Source: Zhongshania aquimaris (GTDB taxonomy: Bacteria > Pseudomonadota > Gammaproteobacteria > Pseudomonadales > Spongiibacteraceae). From it: a stretch of 64,000 bases of DNA. The notes beneath the pieces were generated by a model. The model made no database searches. It was not told the origin of the DNA and was given only the letters and a program-made list of their open reading frames with translations. The translations under genes and the position numbers were made by a program. Shown in pieces: positions 17,963 through 63,638 of this stretch; position 1 is the first letter of the stretch; each line of letters begins with the position of its first letter. The DNA lies in assembly GCF_019312595.1 (NCBI RefSeq), contig NZ_JAHWDQ010000001.1, positions 1,054,001-1,118,000 on the forward strand, written 5' to 3'.

Positions 17963-18093
17963 TGCTGGATGGGAGACGGGAAACGCAAAAGACGCCTCAT
18001 CTCCCAACCATGGACTTAATCACAAAAAAAGGAGTATGGACGTCGACAGCGGCGGTAGGCCTAGGTTAGCGTCTTCCGTCTCCCATCAAGCGT
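17963..18093. repeat. Family A intergenic inverted repeat between purH and purD
   Basis: The left arm (17963-17986) contains TGCTGGATGGGAGACGGG and the right arm (18069-18093) contains CCGTCTCCCATCAAGCG, so the ends pair over about 24 nt with few mismatches. It is one copy of a dispersed element seen repeatedly in the steroid cluster. Part of the right arm would lie in the purD 5' leader. Confidence 0.85.
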
Positions 18094-24642: not shown

Positions 24643-24765
24643 AAATGCTGGACGGGAGACGGGGGAAGCAAAAGCTTGAGATTGGAGAGTCCTAACGCCA
24701 CGCAATTCTTGCAAGCTCAGCGGCGACCACCGCCCGCTTTTGCGTTTACCGTCTCCCATCCTGCG
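24643..24765. repeat. Family A intergenic inverted repeat between crp and trpC
   Basis: The left arm (24643-24675) contains TGCTGGACGGGAGACGGG and the right arm (24735-24765) contains ACCGTCTCCCATCC. Both arms also carry GCAAAAGC/GCTTTTGC next to the core. It lies between convergent genes, so it cannot belong to a 5' leader. Confidence 0.87.
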
Positions 24766-51135: not shown

Positions 51136-52338
51136 TTATGCTATTTCAAATAAAGCCGCAGCACCCATACCACCGCCAATACACATAGTAACTACCGCGT
51201 ATTTAACACCACGGCGCTTACCTTCGATTAGGGCGTGACCGACCATACGCGCACCACTCATACCAAAGGGATGACCAATCGCGATGGCACCGCCATTCAC
51301 GTTGAGTTTGTCATTGTCTATACCGAGTTGATCGCGGCAGTAAATAACCTGACAAGCAAAGGCTTCGTTCAATTCCCACAAGCCGATATCATCCACTTTT
51401 AAACCAGCACGTTTTAGCAATTTAGGAATAGCAAACACCGGGCCAATACCCATCTCGTCAGCTTTGCAGCCAGCGACGGCCATGCCGCGATAAATGCCCA
51501 GTGGCGCCAACCCTTTTTGCTCGGCCAATTTCCTGTCCATAACCACACAAGCCGACGCACCATCTGACAGCTGCGAGGCATTACCGGCGGTAATAAAACG
51601 ACCCTGCTTCACCCACTGACCATCTTTGAATACCGGCTCCAGCGACGAGAGGCTTTCCAGTGTGGTTGACGGACGATTGCACTCATCGGTTTCTAAAATA
51701 ATATCTTTAAACGTGGTTTCTTTAGTCTCTTTATTAAACACCGACATGCTGGTGGCAAAGGGGACAATCTCCGCCTTAAACAAACCCGCTTGCTGGGCCG
51801 CCGCAACCCGCTGCTGACTTTGCAATGAATAGATGTCCTGCGCTTCGCGGCTAACACCGTAGCGATCAGACACTATTTCGGCAGTCTCAATCATCGGAAT
51901 GTAAGCAGTTGGATCAATATCCAGAACCGTTTGCGACACATTGCGGTAGCTATTTTTGTGTTTGGTCTGTACCAGCGAAATAGACTCTAAACCACCGGCA
52001 ACGGCGATATCAATTTCGTTGCACATAATCGATTTTGCCGCCCAGGCAATCGACATCAAGCCGGAGGAACACTGACGTTCAATCGCCATACCCGGCACGC
52101 TGTCAGGCAAGCCCCCAGCCACTGCGCACAAACGACCAAGGTTATAAGCCTGCGTTCCCTGCTGCGCTGCGGCGCCAAAAATCACATCGTCGACAGACGC
52201 AGGATCAATGCCCGCGCGCTCAACCGCTGCGCGCACAACGTGGCCACCCATCGCTGGAGCTTCAGTATTGTTTAATGCGCCGCGAAAAGATTTACCCATT
52301 CCGGTACGTGCGGTTGAAACGATAACGGCTTCTTTCAT
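51136..52338 (-). CDS. Acetyl-CoA acyltransferase (thiolase)
   Basis: The 400-residue thiolase has nucleophile Cys in [11 protein letters not shown], then [11 protein letters not shown] (His) and CIGGGMGAA (second Cys). It is the last gene of the steroid cluster and differs clearly from the FadA6-like thiolase upstream. It could cleave a later intermediate of ring C/D degradation or act on side-chain or ordinary 3-ketoacyl-CoAs. It converges on the YgjP-like gene, with only 20 nt between the stops. Confidence 0.87.
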
Positions 52339-52401: not shown

Positions 52402-52480
52402 GTGACGCTAAATGGGAGACGGGAGACGCCAATAAAAATTCGCCCAGCGTTCTCCGTCTCCCTTCTAGCATCTCCCGTTC
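52402..52480. repeat. Family A intergenic inverted repeat before the thiolase
   Basis: The left part contains AATGGGAGACGGGAGACGCC (52411-52430) and the right part contains GCGTTCTCCGTCTCCC (52448-52463) followed by TAGCATCTCCCGTT. The loop is short, about 17 nt. It lies between ipdF and the thiolase gene on the transcribed strand. Confidence 0.87.
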
Positions 52481-52481
52481 A

Positions 52482-53270
52482 TTAGGCTCGCTGCGATGAA
52501 CAGCTGACGATTTCACCCGTCATATAGCTAGAATAATCCGAGGCGAGGAACATCATGATATTCGCTACTTCCCACACTTCGGCGCCGCGACCATAGGCCT
52601 CGCGGCTTTCGAGTTCAGCGAGCAATGCTTCTGGCGCAGATTTTTTCAGCATAGCGTGTACCGCCAAAGACGGCGCTACCGCATTGATGCGCACACCAAA
52701 ATCTGCGGCCTCTAACGCGGCGCAACGCGTCAGCGCCATAACGCCTGCTTTTGCAGCGGCATAATGGGCCTGCTCTTTTTGTGCGCGCCAGCCAAGTACA
52801 GAGGCGTTATTCACAATCACGCCGTGTCCGCGCTCTTTCATGACTTTCATCATGTAGCGAGTCATACGCATAGTGCCGTTTAAGGTCACATCGATAACCT
52901 TATTCCACTCCGGGTCTTCCATCTCGATGAGCAATTTAGTGGTGCCCAAACCGGCGTTGTTAATTAATACATCAACGCCGCCAAGCAATTCTTCAGCGGT
53001 ATTAATCAAAGCCTGCACATCTTCCTCTACAGCAACATTGCCGACCTTGCCATAGACCTGCTCACATCCCGTTTCAGCTTTGAGTTTTTCGACTGACGCG
53101 CTTAAACGACCTTCATGAATATCGCTAATCACGATCCCACGACAGCCTTCTTCAATCGCTCGCTGCGCCGCCGAAAAACCAATACCGGCACCCGCCGCAG
53201 CGGTGATAAGAACTGATTTACCTTTTAAAAGGCCGTGGCCTTGAACGTATTCTGGGACTTTGATGTTCAT
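52482..53270 (-). CDS. ipdF: Ring C/D hydroxyacyl-CoA dehydrogenase (SDR), IpdF-like
   Basis: The 262-residue SDR has the NAD-binding segment VLITAAAGAGIGFSAA, NNAG, VNNASVLGWRAQ (Ser) and HYAAAKAG (YxxxK). The VNNASVLGWRAQ and DYSSYMTGE stretches, the GHGLL N-terminus and the neighbourhood agree with Mycobacterium IpdF (Rv3559c), which oxidises the 5-hydroxy group of the ring C/D acyl-CoA intermediate. The assignment is from remembered family sequence, so it is probable rather than proven. Confidence 0.8.
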   Translation of the reverse strand: MNIKVPEYVQGHGLLKGKSVLITAAAGAGIGFSAAQRAIEEGCRGIVISDIHEGRLSASVEKLKAETGCEQVYGKVGNVAVEEDVQALINTAEELLGGVDVLINNAGLGTTKLLIEMEDPEWNKVIDVTLNGTMRMTRYMMKVMKERGHGVIVNNASVLGWRAQKEQAHYAAAKAGVMALTRCAALEAADFGVRINAVAPSLAVHAMLKKSAPEALLAELESREAYGRGAEVWEVANIMMFLASDYSSYMTGEIVSCSSQRA

Positions 53271-53296
53271 TGTTTTCTCCGTTTAATGCTTGGCTG

Positions 53297-53490
53297 TATG
53301 CTTGACGGGAGACGGGAAACGCTGAGCTGGATCGCAGTATTTCTCGACACTGGTATTATCTTGAAAAATTATTCACACTTTTAAATTTGTTAAAGCTACC
53401 TACGCTGGACGGGAGAAGATAAACGTAAAGAAAAGGTCGATAGGCGTGCTTTTGAATTAGCATCTACCGTCTCCCGTCAAGCATCTCCCG
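53297..53490. repeat. Compound family A repeat between fadE30 and ipdF
   Basis: Two left arms occur (TGCTTGACGGGAGACGGG at 53299-53318 and CGCTGGACGGGAGAAG at 53403-53418) but only one right arm group (ACCGTCTCCCGTCAAGC then ATCTCCCG, 53466-53490). This looks like one element inserted in or duplicated from another. Confidence 0.82.
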
Positions 53491-53496
53491 CAACAC

Positions 53497-54687
53497 CTAC
53501 GGCCTCAACTCCTTCGGCATTCCCAAACCGCGCTCGGCAATAATATTGCGCTGTATCTGATTGGTACCGCCGTAAATCGTGTCTGAGCGGGTAAACAAGA
53601 ACAGTGACTGCAGGCGATTTAATTCGTACGGTGCGTCTAGCAAAATATCTGCCTCGGCGCCTAAAATATCCATGGCCAACTCGCCAAGATCACGGTGCCA
53701 CGTGGCCCAGTACAATTTATAAATCAGCGCTTCTTTTTGCAGACTGCCATCACCGCTATTACCTGACAGCATACGCATGCTGTTGTAGCGCATAATTTTC
53801 AAGCCAATATGGGCGTCGGCGATACGCTGACGAATGACAGGATCTTTAGCGGCGCCATTTCTCTTTGCCAATGCCACCACTTCATTCAATTCATTTTGAA
53901 AAGCCATTTGCTGACCGAGGGTGGACACGCCGCGTTCATAACCCAGCAAGCCCATAGCCACTTTCCAGCCTTCTCCGGGCTCACCCACAATGTCGTTGGC
54001 ATCGCATTGTGCATCGTCAAAAAATACCTCGTTAAACTCCGAGGTACCGGTGATTTGCTCTATCGGCCTAACCGTGACGCCAGGCTGATCCATTTTTATC
54101 AGGAAAAAACCTAAACCTTTATGCGCCTTCGACTCAGGGTCGGTGCGGGCAATCACAAAGCAATATTCAGATTCGTGAGCTAATGATGTCCAGACTTTTT
54201 GACCATTGATAATCCACTTGCCACTGGCTTCATCAAGGCGCGCCTTAGTCTTTACATTTGCCAAATCCGAACCGGCACCCGGCTCTGAATAGCCCTGGCA
54301 CCAGAACTCGGTGCCCGACAAAATACCCGGCAGGTATTTTCTCTTTTGCTCGTCACTGCCAAAGGCGATTAAGGTTGGCCCCGCCAAGCCGTCGCCAATA
54401 TGCCCCATACGCCCAGGTGCGCCGGCCCGCGCATATTCTTCAAAGAAAATAACTTGCTGTTCAATCGACAGACCACGACCGCCGTGCTCCTTCGGCCACC
54501 CCACACAAGTCCAGCCGCCTTCCGCTAATTTGCGCTCCCACTTCTTGCGCTCTTCCGGAAACATATGCTCATCGCCGGGACCACCGCGAAATTTTAACTG
54601 CGCGAATTCGCCCACCAAATTGTCGGCGAGCCACGCGGCAATTTCGGCGCGGAATTGTTCATCTGCAGGGCTAAATTGTAGTTTCAT
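53497..54687 (-). CDS. fadE30: FadE30-like acyl-CoA dehydrogenase
   Basis: This 396-residue flavoprotein closely follows the remembered FadE30 (Rv3560c) pattern: WLADNLVGEFA, GGPGDEH, CVGWPKEHGGRGLS, CQGYSEPGAGSDLA, WTSLAHESEYCFVIARTD, ITGTSEFNEVFFDD, ERGVSTLGQQ and FLFTRSDTIYGGTNQIQRN. FadE30 starts removal of the propionate side chain of HIP-CoA by dehydrogenation. It is the key marker for the ring C/D assignment. The next upstream gene is another dehydrogenase of different length. Confidence 0.87.
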   Translation of the reverse strand: MKLQFSPADEQFRAEIAAWLADNLVGEFAQLKFRGGPGDEHMFPEERKKWERKLAEGGWTCVGWPKEHGGRGLSIEQQVIFFEEYARAGAPGRMGHIGDGLAGPTLIAFGSDEQKRKYLPGILSGTEFWCQGYSEPGAGSDLANVKTKARLDEASGKWIINGQKVWTSLAHESEYCFVIARTDPESKAHKGLGFFLIKMDQPGVTVRPIEQITGTSEFNEVFFDDAQCDANDIVGEPGEGWKVAMGLLGYERGVSTLGQQMAFQNELNEVVALAKRNGAAKDPVIRQRIADAHIGLKIMRYNSMRMLSGNSGDGSLQKEALIYKLYWATWHRDLGELAMDILGAEADILLDAPYELNRLQSLFLFTRSDTIYGGTNQIQRNIIAERGLGMPKELRP

Positions 54688-54704
54688 GATGTAATGCTCG
54701 CTTT

Positions 54705-54765
54705 ATGCTGGACGGGAGATGGGAGGCGCAAAAAATGGCTTCCCCTGTGTCTACCGTCTCTCATA
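54705..54765. repeat. Family A intergenic inverted repeat next to fadE30
   Basis: TATGCTGGACGGGAGATGGG at 54705-54724 and ACCGTCTCTCATA at 54753-54765 form the arms; the right arm is more diverged than in other copies. A family B element begins only 7 nt later. Confidence 0.82.
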
Positions 54766-54771
54766 TTAAAT

Positions 54772-54850
54772 CGCCGGTCGGATGTCTGACGTCGGAGGTA
54801 AAGGCTATGTTCAGAGCCATCGTCCGACTTCCGACCTCTGACGTCCGACT
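54772..54850. repeat. Family B intergenic inverted repeat abutting an acyl-CoA dehydrogenase stop
   Basis: The left arm has GGTCGGATGTCTGACGTCGG (54776-54795). The right arm has CGTCCGACTTCCGACCTCTG (54821-54840) and ACGTCCGACT up to 54850, which overlaps the stop codon of the dehydrogenase gene (54849-54851). So the element's end lies in the gene's last codon. Confidence 0.85.
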
Positions 54851-56003
54851 AATCAAGTAAAACCCCCGCTACTCGCTCGCGGTGATAAACGCTATTACCC
54901 AAAAAATGTTCACTGGCTTTTGCGCGTTTAAAATATAAATGCACATCGTATTCCCAGGTAAACCCGACCCCGCCATGCATCTGCAAGGCTTCGCCTGCGT
55001 TTTTAAAATAGGCTTCTGAACAATAGGATTTCGCGATGCTCGCGGCCTCAGCCAGTTCATCGGCTAAGGGCCCTGCGCTAAGTGCATCATCCGCAATACA
55101 GGCGGCGTAGTAGACCGCTGAGCGCGCGACTTCATTGCGCAGCATCATGTCGGCAGCCTTGTGTTTTATGGCTTGGAAACCAGCGATTGAGCGGCCAAAT
55201 TGATTGCGGCTCTTGGTGTAATCCACCGTGATATCTAAAATTTGCTGCATACCGCCAGCTTGCTCAGCCGCTAAGGCAATAGTGGCAAGATCTAGTATTT
55301 TCGATAGGGCTTTTGCGGCTGTACCGAAGTCACCCATGACACTCTCAGCGGGCAAGCGTAGATCAGTTAGTTCAATCGCCGCTTGGCGCCGGCTTTGATC
55401 CATGGTCGGCAATAGACTGCGCTGAATGCCATCGGTATCTGCCGTACAGACAAACAGGCTAATACCTTCCGCGCCAACGCTGCCCTCTTCACGGGCTGCA
55501 ATAATTAAATAATCGGCACTGTGACCATCGAGTACATAACGATACTGGCCGTTGAGAATGGCGGTGTCGCCGTCACGTTTATAGCTTGCGGTCACCGCAT
55601 CCGCACTCCAAAGATTGCTGCCGCCGTTAAATGCGAGGGTAGCGGTTTTACCTTCAATAAGCTGGGGAAGAATCTCAGTTTTTTGATCGTCAGTACCGGC
55701 GATCAATAAGGCGTTGGTAGCCATTGCCACGGTGGCAAGGTAGGGAGAGCACAGCAGATAGCGGCCCATTTGCTCCAGCACTGCGACCAGCTCGACATAG
55801 CCTAAGCCCATGCCGCCGTATTCTTCTGGAATATGCAAAGCCTGCCAATACATATCAGTGCAGATGCGCTGCCAAAGATCGGGGGAGTAACCCAGATCAC
55901 TTGCCATAGCACTGCGAATAGCTGCGCTGGTGGAAGCGTCTTTAAGAAAAGACGCCGCCGTGTCGCGGATCATTTCTTGTTCTTGCGTAAATGCGAATTC
56001 CAT
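54849..56003 (-). CDS. Acyl-CoA dehydrogenase, ring C/D cluster (FadE31/32/33 group)
   Basis: The 384-residue protein begins MEFAFTQEQEMIRDTAASFL and has the flavin/substrate region QFGRSIAGFQAIKHKAADM and the C-terminal HGGVGFTWEYDVHLYFKRA. It is probably one subunit of a heteromeric steroid-type acyl-CoA dehydrogenase. The third position after FadE30 and the other pair is compatible with a FadE33-like role, but exact orthology cannot be fixed by eye. Its stop codon is partly formed by a repeat element. Confidence 0.8.
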   Translation of the reverse strand: MEFAFTQEQEMIRDTAASFLKDASTSAAIRSAMASDLGYSPDLWQRICTDMYWQALHIPEEYGGMGLGYVELVAVLEQMGRYLLCSPYLATVAMATNALLIAGTDDQKTEILPQLIEGKTATLAFNGGSNLWSADAVTASYKRDGDTAILNGQYRYVLDGHSADYLIIAAREEGSVGAEGISLFVCTADTDGIQRSLLPTMDQSRRQAAIELTDLRLPAESVMGDFGTAAKALSKILDLATIALAAEQAGGMQQILDITVDYTKSRNQFGRSIAGFQAIKHKAADMMLRNEVARSAVYYAACIADDALSAGPLADELAEAASIAKSYCSEAYFKNAGEALQMHGGVGFTWEYDVHLYFKRAKASEHFLGNSVYHRERVAGVLLD

Positions 56004-56080
56004 ACTGTCTCCGAAACCGGACAGCGACCTTTACATTTACGCAAGCTGCGACGTGTATAACGCCGCAGCTTAACAACTGT

Positions 56081-56623
56081 TTATAGACGCAGTTGCAAAC
56101 GTATGAAGGCACCGTCTTCAAATTCAAATTTGCCGCCAGTGTCAGCGTCAAATTCCATATCACCGTAACCAACTTGAATGGCGGAATTTTGGAAAATAGT
56201 AAACTCCGCACTCACCGACCACTCTTTATAGCCGTCAATATCACCAAAGCCAGTTGCATCGGGGGCGTAGTACAAACCGCCGCGCAGACTGACGATTTCA
56301 TTTAAAGGCAAGCGCAAATCGCCACCAAAGGCGACCGCACCGCCATCCAGATCAGTTGTGTCATCACCGTCTAAGCCAATGGCTTTTGCGCCAACCCGTC
56401 CGCTCAGTGCGCCGCGCTGACCATTTGCAAACAAACCCAAAGCCACTAAATTTGCACCGTCTTCATGGTGCAGCACATCGAGCTGAGCACTGCTTTCCGG
56501 GCTCATGTCACCAGCAACAGAAACACCGAAACTGTCGTCACCAAAACGAAAGGCGACACCGCCGGCAAAGGCCGAACTGCTTGCAATGGCTAACACGGCG
56601 GCTGCGATTAAAGGGGCTTTCAT
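56081..56623 (-). CDS. YfaZ-family outer-membrane beta-barrel protein
   Basis: The 180-residue protein has a clean signal peptide (APLIAAAVLAIASSSAFAGG) and alternating-strand repeats ending in the aromatic-free but OMP-like RLQLRL. It matches the small YfaZ outer membrane family, whose function is unknown. It lies inside the steroid cluster on the same strand, 37 nt after the SDR gene stop. A role in steroid passage or envelope adaptation is an inference from position only. Confidence 0.8.
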   Translation of the reverse strand: MKAPLIAAAVLAIASSSAFAGGVAFRFGDDSFGVSVAGDMSPESSAQLDVLHHEDGANLVALGLFANGQRGALSGRVGAKAIGLDGDDTTDLDGGAVAFGGDLRLPLNEIVSLRGGLYYAPDATGFGDIDGYKEWSVSAEFTIFQNSAIQVGYGDMEFDADTGGKFEFEDGAFIRLQLRL

Positions 56624-56661
56624 GGTCGTGATTCTCCTGATGTAAACGTCAAAGGATAAAA

Positions 56662-57546
56662 TCAGCTACCATACACTTTTTGCGCCGGTACTGCCTCCGC
56701 CATGAGCGTTTTTACCGCTTCGCCGACCTCGGCAGGCTCCCAGCGCGCGCCCTTATCGACCTCAGGGCCCTTGCGCCAACCGTCAGCGAGGGAAATTTTT
56801 CCGCCCTCTGCCTCAAACACACAACCATTTACATGCGCTGATTCACTGCTGCCTAACCACACCAGTAGTGAAGACACGTTCTCAGGCGCAAAAAAATCAA
56901 AACTGCCATCATCCGGCTTCGCCATACGGGTGGCCATGGCCTCAACCGCCGTGGTCATATTAGTGCGGGCTGCCGGTGCGACCGCATTCGCGGTAATACC
57001 GTAGCGAGCAAGCTCAGCGCCTTGGTTCAAAGTAAGCGCGGCAATCCCCGCTTTAGCGGCAGCATAATTTGATTGACCAATTGAGCCCTGCAAACCAGCA
57101 CCCGAGGTTGTATTTATAATGCGCGCATCGACAGGCTTACCCTCTTTGGATTTACCACGCCAGTAATGAACGGCGTGTGAAGTGATGCAAAAATGGCCTT
57201 TTAGATGCACAGCCATGATGGTGTCCCATTCTGCCTCGGTCATCGACGCGAACATACGGTCGCGGTTAACACCGGCATTATTCAACACAATATGGAGATC
57301 GCCAAAGGTATCGATGGCCTGCTTCACCGCATTCAAGCTATCGTCGTAATTGGTAATATCAGAGGTATTCACCACAGCCTTACCACCGGCGGCAGTAATC
57401 TCATCCACCACTTTTTGCGCAGCCGCTTCGTTAATATCGTTGACTACAACCGAGGCGCCCTCAGCAGCAAATACTTTTGCATGTGCCGCACCAAGGCCGC
57501 CACCTGCACCGGTGATAATCACCACTCTGTCATTACAAATTGCCAT
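56662..57546 (-). CDS. SDR-family hydroxyacyl-CoA/hydroxysteroid dehydrogenase
   Basis: The 294-residue SDR has VVIITGAGGGLGAAHAKVFA for NAD binding, NNAGVNRDRMF, INTTSGAGLQGS (Ser) and SNYAAAKAG (YxxxK). It resembles the dehydrogenase part of peroxisomal multifunctional protein 2 and mycobacterial Rv3548c, a neighbour of echA20 and ipdAB there. It probably oxidises a 3-hydroxyacyl-CoA in the ring C/D pathway. Its stop lies close before yfaZ. Confidence 0.82.
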   Translation of the reverse strand: MAICNDRVVIITGAGGGLGAAHAKVFAAEGASVVVNDINEAAAQKVVDEITAAGGKAVVNTSDITNYDDSLNAVKQAIDTFGDLHIVLNNAGVNRDRMFASMTEAEWDTIMAVHLKGHFCITSHAVHYWRGKSKEGKPVDARIINTTSGAGLQGSIGQSNYAAAKAGIAALTLNQGAELARYGITANAVAPAARTNMTTAVEAMATRMAKPDDGSFDFFAPENVSSLLVWLGSSESAHVNGCVFEAEGGKISLADGWRKGPEVDKGARWEPAEVGEAVKTLMAEAVPAQKVYGS

Positions 57547-57570
57547 TACTGTTATTCCTCGTTTAAGTGA

Positions 57571-57754
57571 TTGGTCAGACGTCTGATGTCTGACGAAAGG
57601 TCAAAAGCAAGCTTGACAGTGCCTGGGAGTTGAATTTCCATTTTCCGACTTCCGACTTCCGACTTCCGACTTCCGACTTCCGACTTCCGACTTCCGACTT
57701 CCGACTTCCGACTTCCGACTTCCGACGTCCGACGTCCGACGTCCGACGTCCGAC
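57571..57754. repeat. Family B repeat with 16 tandem heptamers
   Basis: The left arm TCAGACGTCTGATGTCTGAC (57575-57594) precedes a right arm expanded into 12 copies of TTCCGAC (57643-57726) and 4 copies of GTCCGAC (57727-57754) without interruption. The last base touches the stop codon of fadA6. In other copies the right arm has only two or three such units, so this is a microsatellite expansion of the element's own arm. Confidence 0.93.
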
Positions 57755-58902
57755 TAAAGTCTTTCAATTATCGTTACATTCGCCTGACCACCGCCTTCGC
57801 ACATGGTCTGCAAACCATAGCGACCACCGGTGCGCTCAAGCTCATGAAGCAAAGTCGTCATTAATTTTGTGCCTGTTGCGCCCAGTGGATGACCTAAGGC
57901 AATCGCACCACCATTCACATTGGTTTTAGCATGGTCATAACCGGTTTCTTTCAACCACGCCATGACCACCGAGGCAAAGGCTTCGTTGATTTCGACAAGG
58001 TCAATATCCTGTAGAGACATGCCCGATTTTTTCAGTGCATATTCGGTGGCAGAAATCGGCGCCGTCAGCATCCAAATTGGGTCGTCTGCACGCACGCTCA
58101 TATGATGAATACGGGCGCGGGGCGTTAAGTTATAGCGTTTAAGTGCCGCTTCACTAACAACAAGAACGGCACTAGACGCATCGCAGGTTTGGCTAGACAC
58201 AGCCGCAGTCACTTTGTCGCAGCCAAACAAAAAATCTAATTCCGCCATTTTTTCTAAGCTGGAATTACGCGGCGTTTCATCCATTTTCACGTCGCCAAAG
58301 GGAATAATTTCCTTATCGAAATGACCCGCGGCAATTGCCTTTAATGCGCGCTGATGCGACTCATAAGAAAACAGTTCTAAATCTTTGCGCGATAAATTCC
58401 ATTTATCGGCAATCATCTGTGCAGATTTAAACTGCGTTGGTGGCTCGGCACCGTAGCGCTCCACCCAACCAGTCGATCCAGAGAAGGGGTCGCTAAAACC
58501 CAAGGGCGCAGCCAAAGTCATCGCAGATGAAATGGGAATTTGCGTCATGGTCTGCACACCGCCCGCCACAATCACGTCCATACAACCAGACATAATTGCC
58601 TGCGCCGCAAAATGCACCGACTGCTGCGATGAGCCGCACTGACGATCAATCGTCGTGCCCGGTACTTCTTGTGAAAGACCCGCCGCCAACCATGCGCTGC
58701 GTGCGATGTCGCCCGCGAGCGGGCCAACGGTATCTACACAACCAAAGATGACATCGTCGTATTCATTATCAGGAATGCCGTTGCGCTCAACGATGGCCTT
58801 CAACACGTGTGCACCCAAGTCTGCGCCGTGCACATGAGCAAGACCGCCTTTACGGCGCCCTGTTGGGCTGCGAACTGCGTCTACGATGTATGCTTCTGCC
58901 AT
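57754..58902 (-). CDS. fadA6: FadA6-like thiolase
   Basis: The 382-residue thiolase has nucleophile Cys in DRQCGSSQQSVHF, GHPLGATGTKL (His) and the terminal CEGGGQANVTIIERL. The TIIERL end, IPISSAMT and the WLAAGL segments agree with remembered Mycobacterium FadA6 (Rv3556c), which cleaves a late ring C/D CoA ester after ring opening. The stop is directly bordered by the 16-heptamer tract. A family A element lies upstream. Confidence 0.87.
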   Translation of the reverse strand: MAEAYIVDAVRSPTGRRKGGLAHVHGADLGAHVLKAIVERNGIPDNEYDDVIFGCVDTVGPLAGDIARSAWLAAGLSQEVPGTTIDRQCGSSQQSVHFAAQAIMSGCMDVIVAGGVQTMTQIPISSAMTLAAPLGFSDPFSGSTGWVERYGAEPPTQFKSAQMIADKWNLSRKDLELFSYESHQRALKAIAAGHFDKEIIPFGDVKMDETPRNSSLEKMAELDFLFGCDKVTAAVSSQTCDASSAVLVVSEAALKRYNLTPRARIHHMSVRADDPIWMLTAPISATEYALKKSGMSLQDIDLVEINEAFASVVMAWLKETGYDHAKTNVNGGAIALGHPLGATGTKLMTTLLHELERTGGRYGLQTMCEGGGQANVTIIERL

Positions 58903-58929
58903 GTTAAATCCTCTGCCTTTATCTGCGTT

Positions 58930-59080
58930 ATGCTGGACGGGAGACGGAAAACGCTAACCCCTCATCCCCGATGTACTATTTATTCTAAAGGTTAACTTTT
59001 TCTACTTGTGTTTAAGTTGCTATAAAACAACAGAAGCAAACGCTGCTTTTGCATCTCCCATCTCCCGTCAAGCTTCTCCC
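58930..59080. repeat. Family A intergenic inverted repeat upstream of fadA6
   Basis: ATGCTGGACGGGAGACGG at 58930-58947 pairs with CATCTCCCATCTCCCGTCAA (59052-59071) and AGCTTCTCCC (59071-59080). The loop is long (about 100 nt) and AT-rich, with no gene in it. Confidence 0.85.
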
Positions 59081-59085
59081 TTTAG

Positions 59086-60141
59086 CTAAGCCGCAAACGT
59101 ATTCCCAGCGCCTAACTTCGCTTCATCACTAAACACAAACTCCGCAATGCGCTGCTTATGAAAACCGGCTGTGCCATAGCTGCTGTTTAGCGCCCATGCA
59201 CGTTTCATGAAAATATGCAAATCCACTTCCCAGGTGTAACCCATGGCGCCATGGACTTGAATGCTATTTTTAGCCGCTAAATCGGCTACTTCGCAGGCCA
59301 CTACTTTGGCGTGGCTAACATTGTGCGAAGCACTGGATAATTTATTTGCCAGCGCGTAAGCGGCGCGATAAACCGGTGTTTTGGCGTACTCCAATTTGTA
59401 AGCGATATTTGCCATATGATGCTTAACCGCTTGGAAGCTACCGATAGCGACACCAAACTGTTTGCGATCCGTGGTGTATTGCACAGAGATATCGATCATG
59501 CGCTGGGCAACGCCAAGCGCCTGTGCTGCCGCTGCTAAAGCACCGCGATTAAGAGCAAACACAACTAAATCTTTTGCCTTTTGGCCGTCTGCTAATTTAT
59601 GAGCCGCAGCGACATCAAATTCGACGGCAAACAATTTGCGCCCCAAATCAATGGACTCGTTGTAGCGAAGCTCAACTGCGCCCGCTTCCACCGCATACAA
59701 CGCACCTTCTTTTTCGAGAATCAACAGATCAGCGATATGCGCATCTTCAACGAGATTATTCACTTCCAGACCAACCACGACCTTGGCTTCGCCACTGGCA
59801 ATTTTAGGAAGCCACTGCTCAGCAAAGGCAGAATCGCCAACCTCCATAATGGTTGGCACTGCAACCAGCGCGCTGTGAACCAGTGGCTCAGCCAAAGCAA
59901 CATAGCCCGCCTCCTGCGCTAGCAGAACAAAATCCAACTCGTTCATACCCAAGCCACCATGAGCCTCGGGAACAGTAATGCCAGTAAGACCCATCTCAAC
60001 AAACTGCTGCCACAAAGCATCACTGCGACCAGACTCAGTTTGCCATGCCGCACGAATTGATTCCGGCGTGACCTCGTTAACCAGAAAATCCCTTACCGAC
60101 TCCTGAAACAACAACTGGTCTTCGCTAAATGTAAAATCCAT
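59086..60141 (-). CDS. Acyl-CoA dehydrogenase, small subunit type (FadE32-like)
   Basis: The 351-residue protein begins MDFTFSEDQLLFQESVRDFL and has QFGVAIGSFQAVKHHMANI and HGAMGYTWEVDLHIFMKRAW. It is shorter than a classic ~390-aa dehydrogenase, as in the smaller partners of alpha2beta2 steroid dehydrogenases (FadE32/FadE33 type). The adjacent 390-aa gene is the likely partner. It is separated from that gene by 302 nt with a BIME-like repeat. Confidence 0.82.
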   Translation of the reverse strand: MDFTFSEDQLLFQESVRDFLVNEVTPESIRAAWQTESGRSDALWQQFVEMGLTGITVPEAHGGLGMNELDFVLLAQEAGYVALAEPLVHSALVAVPTIMEVGDSAFAEQWLPKIASGEAKVVVGLEVNNLVEDAHIADLLILEKEGALYAVEAGAVELRYNESIDLGRKLFAVEFDVAAAHKLADGQKAKDLVVFALNRGALAAAAQALGVAQRMIDISVQYTTDRKQFGVAIGSFQAVKHHMANIAYKLEYAKTPVYRAAYALANKLSSASHNVSHAKVVACEVADLAAKNSIQVHGAMGYTWEVDLHIFMKRAWALNSSYGTAGFHKQRIAEFVFSDEAKLGAGNTFAA

Positions 60142-60443
60142 TAGTTCACCTTTTGGGCCTGCATTTATTGGCCGCTAAATTTGTCTGCTTACTTCTTTTC
60201 AATCTCAATTCTTATGCGGGACAAACAAACCAGCCGCATATGTATTCCCGCGCTCCCCACACCCGTCATACCCGACTCGATCGGGTATCCAGAGTGAGCG
60301 GAGCGAATGCCCTTCTTTTCTGGAATATGTCATAGCACGCAATCTGCGGCCTATGGATCCCCGTTTTCACGGGGATGACGTCTAAAAGTCGGCGTCGTTT
60401 GACCGACTGAGCACGATTTCAACGCCGCTATGCGGTGAAAAGA
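60142..60443. other. 302-nt spacer with a BIME-like repeat
   Basis: No gene is visible. The centre holds the family C inverted repeat; the sides are AT-richer and show no clear promoter. This is the longest gap inside the ring C/D cluster. Confidence 0.6.
60264..60380. repeat. Family C BIME-like pair of inverted hairpins
   Basis: The left hairpin is CGTCATACCCGACTCGATCG followed by GGTATCCAGA. The right hairpin, read on the opposite strand, starts CGTCATCCCCGTGAAAACGG. The two are similar to each other in opposite orientation and flank about 50 nt. The GTCATCCCCG(...)CGGGGAT motif is a common bacterial dispersed hairpin. Confidence 0.8.
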
Positions 60444-61616
60444 TCATTTCCTCGGCATACCGAGTAGACGTTCGGCGATTATGTTTCGTTGTATCTCATT
60501 CGTTCCCGCATAAATCGGCCCCGACTGCGAGAACAACCAGCCATCTAACCAGCTACCTACTTCACCGGCGTCGGGTGCGTGGGGTACAAGCTCTGCCCGC
60601 GCGCCTAAAATTTTCAAGCCTAGGCCGTGCATTTGCTGATCAAGCTCTGACCAAAATATTTTATTGGTTGAGGCTTCTGCGCCAATCTTGCCGCCCTGCA
60701 TTAAACGGCAGGCAGTTTGATAGGTGGTTAGTGCGTAGGCTTCGGCATCCATGTAGGCACGTAACACCGCATCGCGCACGGCGGGGTCTTGGTCTGCGCT
60801 TTCTTGATTGGCTTTGTATAAATTTACGAGGCGCTTTGCGGTTTCTTGAAAACGCGCAGGTGAACGGAGCATGAGGCCGCGCTCAAATCCGGCGGTGGCC
60901 ATGGCCACACTCCAACCTTCGCCTTCACCACCTAAGCGGCAATCGACAGGTACTTTGACGTTGTCGAAAAATATTTCCGCAAAACCGGGCAAGCCATCGA
61001 GCTGGGGAATTGGACGAACGGTAATGCCCTCTGATTCCAGCGGCACCAAAATAAAGGTGAGTCCTTTGTGGCGCTCGGATGCCGGATCGGTTCTGAACAT
61101 ACCGAAACACCAGTCCGCCCACACGGCACGGGTAGACCATGTTTTTTGGCCGTTAATGATGTAATGACTACCGTCTTCGCTCAGCGTTGCAGTGGAGCGA
61201 ATCGCCGCCATATCTGAACCGGCGTTTGGCTCAGACCAGCCCTGACACCAGATATCTTTACCTGTTGCCATGCCGTTTAAAAAGCGTTTTTTCTGCTCGT
61301 CGGTGCCGTATTCCATTAGGGTCGGACCGAGCAGGAAAATCCCATTTTGATTTACCCGCAGCGGTGCGCGTGCCGCGTAATACTCTTCTTCAAAAATAAG
61401 CCATTGCAGAAGATCGGCACCACGGCCGCCCATTTCCTCTGGCCAGGTAATCATGCCCCAGCGGCCTTCGTAGAGTTTTGCTTCCCATTCGCGGTGCTGC
61501 TGAAAACCTTCTTCGGTATCGAAGGATTTTAGTGGTTCAGCCGGCACATTAGCCGCAAGCCAAGCGCGAACTTCGGCGCGGAATGCGGTTTGTTCGGGGG
61601 TGTATTCGAGCTTCAT
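60444..61616 (-). CDS. Acyl-CoA dehydrogenase, large subunit type (FadE31-like)
   Basis: Start ATG 61616 gives MKLEYTPEQTAFRAEVRAWL and 390 residues; the frame is open upstream through the repeat element but that part is not conserved. It shows CQGWSEPNAGSDMA, WSTRAVWADWCFGMFRTD, ERGLMLRSPARFQ and PIYAGTNEIQRNIIAERLLG. Pairing with the 351-aa gene fits the heteromeric FadE31-type steroid dehydrogenases. Which intermediate it oxidises cannot be told from sequence. Confidence 0.83.
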   Translation of the reverse strand: MKLEYTPEQTAFRAEVRAWLAANVPAEPLKSFDTEEGFQQHREWEAKLYEGRWGMITWPEEMGGRGADLLQWLIFEEEYYAARAPLRVNQNGIFLLGPTLMEYGTDEQKKRFLNGMATGKDIWCQGWSEPNAGSDMAAIRSTATLSEDGSHYIINGQKTWSTRAVWADWCFGMFRTDPASERHKGLTFILVPLESEGITVRPIPQLDGLPGFAEIFFDNVKVPVDCRLGGEGEGWSVAMATAGFERGLMLRSPARFQETAKRLVNLYKANQESADQDPAVRDAVLRAYMDAEAYALTTYQTACRLMQGGKIGAEASTNKIFWSELDQQMHGLGLKILGARAELVPHAPDAGEVGSWLDGWLFSQSGPIYAGTNEIQRNIIAERLLGMPRK

Positions 61617-61638
61617 ATTTTCTTCCGTTATTCGCAGT

Positions 61639-61710
61639 ACGCTAGATGGAAGACGGAGAACGCAGAACCGCGTTCTTTTGCATCTCCCGTCTCCCGTCAC
61701 GCATCTCCCG
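61639..61710. repeat. Family A intergenic inverted repeat upstream of the FadE31-like gene
   Basis: ACGCTAGATGGAAGACGGAG (61639-61658) and CATCTCCCGTCTCCCGTCAC (61681-61700) plus GCATCTCCCG (61701-61710) form the arms. The left arm is diverged from the family consensus, the right arm keeps it. Confidence 0.85.
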
Positions 61711-61715
61711 CTGTC

Positions 61716-62468
61716 CTAGAACTTGGCATCACGTTTTTCAACAAACGCGTCTTTAGCTTCCTGCGAATCAGGATCGGCATAAGCCTCCTGCGTGAAGCCC
61801 TGCTCCCAGCGGTATTTATCTTCTAAATTACCGTCTTCAATACCGTTTAATGCTTCTTTGGCGAGCTGCACCATGCGCGGTGACTTAGCCGCCATTTTGC
61901 GGGCGATGTCGCGGGCGGTATCGAGTAACTGATCACGGGGCACAACCTTTTCTACAGCACCTAAACGATAGGCTTCCTGCGCATCGATTGGCTCGCCGGT
62001 AAAATACATGTAACGCACTTTTTGCACGGGGAACATACGCTGTAAATGCGCGCCGCCTCCCATGGCACCGCGGTCTACTTCTGGCACGGCAAAGGTGGCG
62101 CACTCGGAGGCAACTAACACATCGGCTGCGCCGCTAATGCCAATCCCGCCGCCCAGTACAAAACCGTGCACGGCAACAATCACCGGCTTGGGGTTGCGGT
62201 GAATCGCTTTAAAGGTGTCGTAATTGCCTTTGTTTACTTTGGTAATCATGGCGCTATTGGCGGCAAGTTCTTTGATATCGACACCGGCACAAAAGCCACG
62301 ACCTTCTGCCGCAATAATAATGGCCCGCACATCAGGGTTTTCACCCAGTGCATTTAGCTCTGCCGCAATCGCCAACCAGCCAGCGCTATTGAAGGCATTC
62401 ACCGGTGGGTGATTAAAAATTACTTCGGCAATACCGCTGTCGATACGAGTAGAAAATGGCTGAGACAT
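61716..62468 (-). CDS. echA20: EchA20-like ring D hydrolase (enoyl-CoA hydratase family)
   Basis: The 250-residue crotonase-fold protein starts with VIFNHPPVNAFNSAGWLAIA, has AAEGRGFCAGVDIKELA and VHGFVLGGGIGISGAADVLV for the oxyanion hole, then FAVPEVDRGAMGGGAHLQR. The PPVNA/GRGF.AGVDIKE/PEV(D/E)RGA pattern agrees with EchA20 (Rv3550), the hydrolase that opens steroid ring D in ring C/D catabolism. It starts 2 nt after ipdC, so the two are coupled. Confidence 0.87.
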   Translation of the reverse strand: MSQPFSTRIDSGIAEVIFNHPPVNAFNSAGWLAIAAELNALGENPDVRAIIIAAEGRGFCAGVDIKELAANSAMITKVNKGNYDTFKAIHRNPKPVIVAVHGFVLGGGIGISGAADVLVASECATFAVPEVDRGAMGGGAHLQRMFPVQKVRYMYFTGEPIDAQEAYRLGAVEKVVPRDQLLDTARDIARKMAAKSPRMVQLAKEALNGIEDGNLEDKYRWEQGFTQEAYADPDSQEAKDAFVEKRDAKF

Positions 62469-62470
62469 GA

Positions 62471-63544
62471 TTATTTCCCCTGCGCCTGTAAACGCTGTAA
62501 TTGGGCTTCGGCCTCGGCAACCAGACCGCTAATTAATTCTTCACAACTTAATAATTTATCGATCACGCCAGCGACTTGACCAGAGGGCAATACGCCGTCG
62601 TCGGGACGACCATCGACCATGGCTTTCTGAATAATCATGGGCGCGTTGGCCGACATAATGGCTTGCGCTGGCGTTAGGTCACCGTCTTTGCTCATGGCGA
62701 TAGCCGACTTCAGCAAACCGAAAATGCTGGCACCGGTAAACTTGCGAAACGCCAAACCGTTACGCAGTGCAATCACTAATTTTTTAAGATTTCCCGCGCG
62801 CTCTAACTCCGCTAAAAAGCGATTTAGAATCATGCGCTGCTGAATACCATCAAGGGCTTGCGAGACAATAATGTCAGCGGGATTTTTACAATCTAAATAG
62901 CGTTGCTTAGTCGCCTCTGGAACGGGACTTTCCTTGGTCAATAAAAAGCGCGTTCCCATCGCGATGCCATCGGCACCAAAGGCCATCGCCGCAATTAAGC
63001 CGCGCCCATCTTTGAAACCACCGGCACCCAACACGGGAACCTGTGCGCCAACCGCGTCTACCACTTGTGGCAATAGCAATGTCGTTGGCACCGAGCCAGT
63101 GTGTCCACCGCCCTCGCCGCCCTGAACCGTAACCGCATCGGCACCCATTTCAACCGCTTTAACAGCGTGCTTGGGCAAGCCGATGGTGGGCATACAGACC
63201 ACGCCGGCATCTTTAAGCTTGGCGACCATGTCCTTGCCCGGTGAGCGCGAGTAACTGACTGCCTTCACCTTGTGCTTAATGACCAGATCGACAATCTCGG
63301 CAGCATTGGGCTGATACATGTGAAAATTGACGCCGAAATTTGCCTCGGTTAATGACTTCACTTTGAGAATATCAGCTTCCATTTGCGCAGGCGGAATCGT
63401 TGCCCCCGCTAAAAAGCCAAAGCCACCGGCATTGCCTGTGCCCGCAACCAACTGCGGATCGGCAACCCAGCCCATCGCAGTCTGGATGACAGGATAGCGG
63501 CAGCCGAGAAGTTCGGTAATTCGAGTATTAAGTAGCTTCGACAT
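62471..63544 (-). CDS. ipdC: IpdC-like FMN enzyme (nitronate monooxygenase family)
   Basis: The 357-residue TIM-barrel flavoprotein has GCRYPVIQTAMGWVADPQLV, AGGFGFLAGATI, VQGGEGGGHTGSVPT and GAGGFKDGRGLIAAMAFGAD, the FMN and phosphate sites of the nitronate monooxygenase/2-nitropropane dioxygenase family. In steroid gene clusters this protein is IpdC, needed to convert the ring C/D CoA ketone before hydrolytic opening. Position between ipdB and echA20 supports that role over nitronate detoxification. Confidence 0.87.
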   Translation of the reverse strand: MSKLLNTRITELLGCRYPVIQTAMGWVADPQLVAGTGNAGGFGFLAGATIPPAQMEADILKVKSLTEANFGVNFHMYQPNAAEIVDLVIKHKVKAVSYSRSPGKDMVAKLKDAGVVCMPTIGLPKHAVKAVEMGADAVTVQGGEGGGHTGSVPTTLLLPQVVDAVGAQVPVLGAGGFKDGRGLIAAMAFGADGIAMGTRFLLTKESPVPEATKQRYLDCKNPADIIVSQALDGIQQRMILNRFLAELERAGNLKKLVIALRNGLAFRKFTGASIFGLLKSAIAMSKDGDLTPAQAIMSANAPMIIQKAMVDGRPDDGVLPSGQVAGVIDKLLSCEELISGLVAEAEAQLQRLQAQGK

Positions 63545-63565
63545 AGTCTTTACCTTGATTGCTTT

Positions 63566-63629
63566 ATGCTGGACGGGAGACGGGAAACGCAGAAGCAGGC
63601 CTTAGCATCTCCCGTCTCCCGTCCAGCAT
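63566..63629. repeat. Best-preserved family A element between ipdB and ipdC
   Basis: The left arm ATGCTGGACGGGAGACGGGA (63566-63585) and right arm (63610-63629) are perfectly complementary over 20 bp, with a 24-nt loop. This copy defines the family consensus. It sits between the ipdB stop and the ipdC start on the transcribed strand. Confidence 0.93.
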
Positions 63630-63638
63630 ATTGCAGTA

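What the first reader, a model, noticed from the sequence alone, without database searches (positions are those of the whole stretch)
52402..63629. Hairpin elements occupy every long spacer of the steroid ring C/D cluster
From the thiolase start to ipdB there are eight intergenic gaps over 90 nt, and all eight contain a family A, B or C inverted repeat. The three gaps under 80 nt contain none. Most family A copies share the TGCTGGACGGGAGACGG left arm and TCCCGTCTCCC right arm. On the mRNA these form hairpins between cistrons and could protect or separate transcript segments, which would make them a regulatory layer of the pathway rather than random repeats.
Basis: partly seen in the sequence, partly recalled or inferred. 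Interest (0 to 1): 0.7.

Follow-up and report, generated by a model that had tools for sequence, protein, structure and literature searches.

The report
Heptamer hairpins tied to orphan IVP gene

Summary
In detail: all eight gaps over 90 nt contain a hairpin element and the three short gaps do not. It is largely circular: two close congeners (G005, G009) have the same operon with gaps of 12-57 nt and no hairpin at the seven A/B positions.

Families A and B are dispersed inverted repeats whose arms are built of 7-nt units. Family A has 38 sites in this genome, all between the main ORFs, 26 within 16 nt of a stop codon. One pair of A arms encloses the genome's only 23S_rRNA_IVP (S23, four-helix-bundle) gene, between metK and ahcY. 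A and B occur in congeners that carry IVP there; the eight that lack it have an empty metK-ahcY gap and A/B counts of zero or at control level.

This generalises: of 165 usable IVP loci from many phyla, 153 have 7 nt as strongest period on at least one flank.

Best reading: A and B are non-autonomous copies of an IVP-linked mobile element. That IVP acts in trans is inferred; its chemistry is unknown. No RAYT and no terminator-like site was found. A pathway-specific regulatory layer is not supported.

The parts
52404..52472 (.). Family A hairpin element, between SDR gene 52482-53270 and thiolase gene 51136-52338
   Evidence: fold z -6.7
53297..53485 (.). Family A element with a third inner arm at 53404
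   Evidence: not folded
54704..54770 (.). Family A element with decayed right arm, directly beside a B element
   Evidence: z -2.8
54766..54848 (.). Family B (GTCNGAN heptamer) hairpin; its array overlaps the TAG stop of gene 54849-56003
   Evidence: z -2.2
57573..57754 (.). Family B element: left arm 57573-57595 and an expanded TTCCGAC/GTCCGAC tandem array to the right, overlapping the stop of gene 57754-58902
   Evidence: the gap is 35 nt shorter in congener G008; not folded
58929..59076 (.). Family A hairpin element
   Evidence: z -5.7
60255..60390 (.). Family C inverted repeat; not heptameric; a separate repeat family
   Evidence: gap lag-7 score 11 of 21; z -4.2
61638..61710 (.). Family A hairpin element
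   Evidence: z -3.7
63560..63635 (.). Family A hairpin element, the most symmetrical copy in the cluster (31-nt arms, 87% complementary)
   Evidence: z -12.0
17964..18091 (.). Family A element outside the cluster
24647..24764 (.). Family A element outside the cluster

Best explanation
Families A and B are small, non-autonomous copies of a mobile element whose complete form is: inverted array of 7-nt units, then a gene for a 23S_rRNA_IVP (S23, TIGR02436) four-helix-bundle protein, then the inverted complement of the array. In this genome the complete copy lies outside the window (G000:C1, about 1,892,711-1,893,171) directly behind the metK stop codon and before ahcY. SHOWN: same arms with and without the gene; filled and empty sites; dispersal; co-occurrence of the hairpins with the gene in one genus; purifying selection on the gene; the heptamer-IVP-heptamer layout in many phyla. 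INFERRED: that IVP acts in trans on the arms (binding the hairpin as DNA or RNA) and so drives spread of the gene-less copies; that copies survive just behind stop codons because there they spare the coding sequence and the next gene's ribosome site; that steps the protein cannot do itself are done by host replication or repair enzymes. No resident reverse transcriptase or RAYT is needed, since this genome has a match to neither.
For: One PF05635 match in the genome, with A arms directly around it. 38 A sites, 26 within 16 nt of a stop codon. Own genome plus 17 congeners: GACGGGAGACGG in 10 of 10 with IVP and 1 of 8 without (p=0.00025); the exception G020 has 3 matches, no more than its reversed-pattern control (3), so it is at chance level. 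B pattern in 9 of 10 and 0 of 8 (p=0.0004; in one carrier, G018, the reversed control also gives 25). The carrier without B, G019, has an IVP with a third heptamer type, and that third type also occurs without IVP in one gap of its ring C/D operon. The 8 include G010, whose weak PF05635 hit I read as a DGR Avd. In all 10 carriers IVP is at metK-ahcY; that gap is empty in 8 of 8 without it. Ring C/D operon: seven A/B gaps 12-57 nt and hairpin-free in G005 and G009, filled in the close carriers G008, G006, G012, G007, G004, and in the two gaps readable in G016. 165 usable of 169 IVP loci: strongest period 7 on both flanks in 118, one in 35, none in 12; 271 of 330 flanks against 317 of 2155 control stretches (ties given to 7 in both); inverted match beats direct by 6 or more in 113 loci, the reverse in 20. 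IVP dN/dS 0.01-0.21 in 16 computable of 18 pairs, 13 of them 0.05-0.09.
Against: No insertion was observed, no target-site duplication could be read, and no catalytic step is known for IVP. The family in a gap does not follow the IVP type a genome now carries, and shared gap alleles suggest recombination between species. The carrier G019 (more distant) has heptamer elements in only two of the seven operon gaps. Congener G014, without IVP, has long gaps at four of the six gaps measured, and G010, G011 and G020 have one gap of about 200 nt, holding a non-heptameric hairpin family or other sequence: long, hairpin-bearing gaps do not require IVP. In 20 versus 20 sampled class genomes the excess of heptamer arrays in IVP carriers is 10 versus 0 arrays, 5 versus 0 genomes (p=0.047); with a second criterion it is 6 versus 1 genomes (p=0.09). 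Dispersed array against own IVP flank (one array per genome, picked by me): rank 1 of 25 in three of five, rank 2 in one, rank 16 in one. An earlier within-locus test gave rank 1 in 7 of 35. G003 has 27 A cores and no IVP found, but is 70% complete. Twelve of 165 IVP loci show no period-7 flank. Loci and congeners are related, so the p-values do not rest on independent counts.
Confidence: 0.72

Rival explanations
1. One reading: the hairpins are a regulatory layer of the steroid ring C/D operon that protects or separates transcript segments.
For: Strong RNA folds; all long spacers filled; six of 38 A sites in 11.2 kb where 0.1 is expected; the gaps are filled in the five close IVP carriers with the full operon and in the two gaps readable in G016; some gaps in congeners without IVP hold another hairpin family.
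Against: Copies lie at 38 sites across the genome; congeners G005 and G009 have the same operon with short hairpin-free gaps at the seven positions; families swap at the same gap; no terminator-like site in the spacers.
Confidence: 0.1
2. IVP is a nucleic-acid-binding regulator and the heptamer hairpins are its binding sites in mRNA; the set spread because binding is useful, not because IVP moves it.
For: IVP is under purifying selection and has nearly invariant polar residues (R47, S51, N55, E58, S78, E81 in the L053 reading; 99-100% of 116 sequences); the sites lie between cistrons; co-occurrence is expected under this too.
Against: In the genus the gene comes and goes together with the hairpins, and the heptamer differs from genome to genome, which suits a self-contained element better. 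Whether the flanking genes share a function was not tested.
Confidence: 0.15
3. Heptamer arrays arise by replication slippage in hairpins and IVP genes are passive passengers that happen to sit in such spacers.
For: Tandem arrays do vary in length (gap of 207 against 172 nt in G000 and G008); slippage is discussed for heptamers in PMC4692102 (passages).
Against: Slippage does not explain the inverted pairing around the gene in 113 of 165 loci, nor the joint presence and absence of hairpins and gene in congeners.
Confidence: 0.06
4. The hairpins are REP/REPIN elements moved by a RAYT.
For: Small, intergenic, inverted, dispersed.
Against: No Y1_Tnp (PF01797) match in the genome although the control search rings in E. 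coli and four others; arms are heptamer arrays.
Confidence: 0.02

Closest known systems
23S rRNA intervening sequences (IVS) with an S23/IVP ORF, e.g. the element described in PMC4990558 (passages read)
   Same: Complementary ends that fold into a long stem, an ORF of the same protein family inside; earlier authors proposed mobility.
   Different: Here the element is in protein-coding operons, its arms are 7-nt arrays, and 37 further A sites in the same genome have no IVP gene.
Heptameric G-rich intergenic repeats of Xanthomonas and Nostoc (PMC4692102; passages and one section read)
   Same: 7-nt units, mostly intergenic, many inverted pairs, close to ORF ends and often just behind stop codons.
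   Different: The paper says the repeats were generally not found with mobile elements, and its main text has no match for S23 or 'four helix'. In X. vasicola L150, GGGAATC-type arms flank an IVP gene and one gene-less inverted pair lies 7.6 kb away.
TAACTGA heptamer repeats of Beggiatoaceae and cyanobacteria (PMC4679880, passages read)
   Same: Intergenic heptamer arrays with patchy cross-phylum spread, for which 'no mechanism is evident'.
   Different: Direct repeats; not tested here for IVP linkage; no match for S23 or 'four helix' in the main text.
REPIN-RAYT system (recalled)
   Same: Small non-autonomous hairpins maintained with a single-copy chromosomal gene.
   Different: No RAYT; different arms and protein.
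Avd of diversity-generating retroelements
   Same: Homologue of IVP according to PMC10053308 (passages); NCBIfam NF033474 matches IVP at E 3e-4, far below its cut-off.
   Different: No reverse transcriptase match in this genome; the Avd-like locus of G010 lacks heptamer arms.

Membership tests
REP/REPIN with RAYT | Y1_Tnp (PF01797) transposase in the genome | tested here: not met
   0 matches; 5 of 14 control genomes ring
Classical MITE of an IS | Terminal repeats shared with a transposase-encoding copy | tested here: inconclusive
   The longer A copy I read encodes IVP, not a transposase; transposase families were not searched for
Classical MITE of an IS | Target-site duplication | tested here: inconclusive
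   Filled and empty sites too diverged to read ends
IVS element with S23/IVP ORF | Encodes a PF05635/TIGR02436 protein | tested here: met
   E 1.0e-35 and 3.4e-36, over cut-off
IVS element with S23/IVP ORF | Complementary ends around the ORF | tested here: met
IVS element with S23/IVP ORF | Sits in an rRNA gene | tested here: not met
   Sits between metK and ahcY in the 10 congeners with it, own genome included (read by eye)
IVS element with S23/IVP ORF | Excised from RNA by RNase III | not testable with these tools
   needs RNA or purified enzyme
Heptameric intergenic repeats (Xanthomonas/Nostoc type) | Arrays of 7-nt units, intergenic, near ORF ends | tested here: met
Heptameric intergenic repeats (Xanthomonas/Nostoc type) | G-quadruplex formation | not tested
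Intrinsic terminator | Hairpin followed by a T run | tested here: not met
   none of 10 terminator-like sites falls in a spacer; 14.5 expected by shuffling; loops over 8 nt are outside this scan

The most novel reading that the evidence does not exclude
IVP (S23) proteins are the trans-acting factors of a widespread class of mobile element in bacteria and at least one archaeal contig: no recognised transposase or reverse transcriptase, ends made of inverted 7-nt arrays whose sequence is re-invented lineage by lineage, and swarms of gene-less hairpin copies parked behind stop codons. This would give a protein family of unknown function a role, and would explain the heptamer repeats of Xanthomonas, Nostoc and others.
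Probability: 0.45. Interest if true: 0.93.

Novelty: new variant of a known kind. Interest (0 to 1): 0.8.

Why it matters
IVP/S23 is described in a paper seen here as functionally uncharacterised (PMC11270868, passages), and heptamer repeats are a noted excess class of bacterial tandem repeats with no agreed origin. The data tie the two together in one genome, in one genus with filled and empty sites, and across phyla. If true it defines a way for a tiny element to spread without a recognisable recombinase, and makes both old questions testable in laboratory strains. None of my ten literature searches listed a paper that I saw to make this link; only the open library was searched, and I opened few of the listed papers.

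Tried and rejected
RAYT: PF01797 absent. Reverse transcriptase helper: RVT_1 has no match in four of the ten IVP carriers of the genus (G000, G006, G007, G018) and matches in five of the eight without IVP (G009, G010, G014, G015, G020), so no dependence is visible. Known RNA family: 11 matches up to E 1, all below gathering scores, read as chance. Anti-phage defence: no PADLOC match for IVP. Phage carriage: no tblastn match in the phage collection. Within-locus test of dispersed heptamers against own IVP arms: first run spoiled by N runs, rerun rank 1 in 7 of 35. Gap occupancy following IVP type: read, no correlation. G020 as counter-example: 3 core matches against 3 in the control; of the three I read two, one inside a coding sequence, one a lone arm. 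In three genomes of the sister genus the metK-ahcY gap holds other repeats, no IVP.

Limits of counts: measure upstream flanks from the HMM or tblastn start, not the start codon (annotated CDS start for the ten plasmid loci). Several loci share a genome or genus. In one search L063, L106 (in-frame stop) and proteins with a stop or under 80 aa were dropped, leaving 116. One search uses a longest-ORF rule; five of 38 sites are also overlapped by a short ORF of 78-106 aa that I discounted. One weak arm (C11) was left out of the 38 sites. For one search, 7 of 46 arm strings were left out. In one search some genomes counted as without IVP (G041-G049) are inferred from not being in the match table. 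In one search the four 'A' arms printed for one G019 gap are a third heptamer type. In one search I examined six A sites of my choice for B units; B units lie inside three of six; the printed offsets carry a constant error. One search scanned 10 of 11 cluster genes; the ECH gene was not scanned.
Full report
WHAT WAS CLAIMED AND WHAT IS THERE. The sequence agrees: gaps of 143, 226, 161, 207, 183, 302, 99 and 94 nt hold elements; gaps of 77, 38 and 2 nt do not. Ten of the eleven cluster genes were scanned; they match thiolases, SDRs and acyl-CoA dehydrogenases, one a FabK-like enzyme below its cut-off, and one has no match at E 1e-20. Folding the coding strand gives z-scores from -2.2 to -12.0 for seven stretches.

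THE RULE IS CIRCULAR. I recovered the same operon in 14 congeners through its 357-aa gene at 62471-63544; L201 (G016) ends early at a contig edge. In G005 and G009, whose copy of that protein is 96 and 95% identical, gene order is unchanged but the seven A/B gaps measure 12-57 nt and hold no hairpin. In the close congeners with IVP the insert begins a few bases behind the stop codon; two B arrays overlap it. So the inserts make the gaps long. Family C is different: that gap is 442 and 581 nt in G009 and G005. The picture is less clean further out: G019, which has IVP, has heptamer elements in only two of the seven gaps, and G014, without IVP, has long gaps at four of the six measured; G014, G020, G010 and G011 share there another, non-heptameric hairpin family.

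THE FAMILIES. A model of the A arm finds 76 arms in the genome, which I merged into 38 sites, setting one weak match aside. All lie between the main ORFs and 26 of 38 are within 16 nt of a stop codon. Six of the 38 fall in this 11.2-kb cluster, where 0.1 is expected; the cluster is unusually dense, and I have no explanation beyond local spread or recombination. A and B arms repeat with period 7.

THE KEY COPY. One A pair, behind metK, encloses a 119-aa 23S_rRNA_IVP protein, the only PF05635 match in the genome, related to the solved structure 2gsc (E 1.4e-34). In ten genomes of the genus (own included) a strong IVP lies at the same place, flanked by A arms in six, B arms in three, and a third heptamer type in G019, which also has an A arm beside it on the metK side. 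The other eight have an empty metK-ahcY gap. The A core is present in 10 of 10 carriers and 1 of 8 others, the exception being at control level; the B pattern is in 9 of 10 and 0 of 8, with one carrier (G018) also showing 25 reversed-pattern matches. The third type of G019 recurs without IVP in its ring C/D operon. IVP in the genus is under purifying selection.

GENERALITY. For 165 usable IVP loci from the genus, the class, other phyla (including one archaeal contig) and ten cyanobacterial plasmids, period 7 is strongest on both flanks in 118, on one in 35 and on none in 12; a lag-7 score of 16 or more occurs in 118 of 165 loci against 59 of 2155 control stretches; the inverted match exceeds the direct match by 6 or more in 113, the opposite in 20. 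The heptamer differs between lineages. Several loci, mostly Bacteroidota, peak at 8 instead. In Xanthomonas vasicola the arms are GGGAATC-type units around an IVP gene, with one gene-less inverted pair 7.6 kb away; this is the repeat motif described in PMC4692102.

WEAKER TESTS. Sampled stretches of 20 class genomes with IVP and 20 without gave 10 and 0 heptamer arrays, in 5 and 0 genomes (p=0.047); adding period-7 inverted repeats gives 6 and 1 genomes (p=0.09). One dispersed array per genome, picked by me, matches its own genome's IVP flank best in three of five cases, second best in one, and at rank 16 of 25 in one. The within-locus test is weak.

HOW IT MOST LIKELY WORKS. IVP and its inverted heptamer arms travel as one element; gene-less copies spread with IVP supplied in trans and persist where they do little harm, behind stop codons. 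Shown: anatomy, filled and empty sites, dispersal, co-occurrence in the genus, selection. Inferred: the trans action and the chemistry. A and B alternate at the same gaps independently of the IVP type now present, and gap alleles are shared across species, so recombination between congeners also shapes the pattern.

COMPARISON. It works like REPIN-RAYT in outline but is not a member. It shares its gene and stem with rRNA IVS elements but lies in an operon and has 37 gene-less sites of family A. It fits the anatomy of published heptamer repeats, for which no mobile partner was reported in the passages I read.

On re-reading I corrected the lower gap bound from 14 to 12 nt, added G019, G014 and the other hairpin family, the control counts of G020 and G018, and the spacer joining.

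Noticed in passing
L322 (NC_019429.1) and L329 (NZ_CP112875.1): On two cyanobacterial plasmids the IVP gene with heptamer arms sits between cas6 and cas4. A CRISPR survey names 23S rRNA IVP in a figure legend (PMC10910872); a link there may be passenger insertion rather than function.
   Followed up: partly
L141, L164, L166, L189, L194 (IVP flanks): Several IVP loci, mostly Bacteroidota, show strongest period 8 rather than 7 in the flanks.
   Followed up: no
window 60255-60390: Family C: a non-heptameric inverted repeat (CGTCAT...GGATGACG type); similar units are stacked with A copies in the 1329-nt gap of congener G004.
   Followed up: partly
L209, L208, L210, L211 (ring C/D operon of G014, G020, G010, G011): A further hairpin family (CTGGCGGCGTT...GGTCATTTAC...TTTGTAAACTCCC type) fills some of the same gaps in congeners that lack IVP.
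   Followed up: no
window 54849-56003 (3' end): The B array overlaps the stop codon; in G005 and G009 the reading frame runs a few codons past this point, so insertion appears to have changed the C-terminus.
   Followed up: partly
L063 (G010:C18): A locus that looks like a diversity-generating retroelement, with an Avd-type protein and repeated VR/TR-like sequence, without heptamer arms.
   Followed up: no
G345:C1: Eleven weak PF05635 matches in a 1.5-Mb genome, several with identical scores.
   Followed up: no
window 56081-56623: 180-aa protein in the operon with no NCBIfam match at E 1e-20.
   Followed up: no
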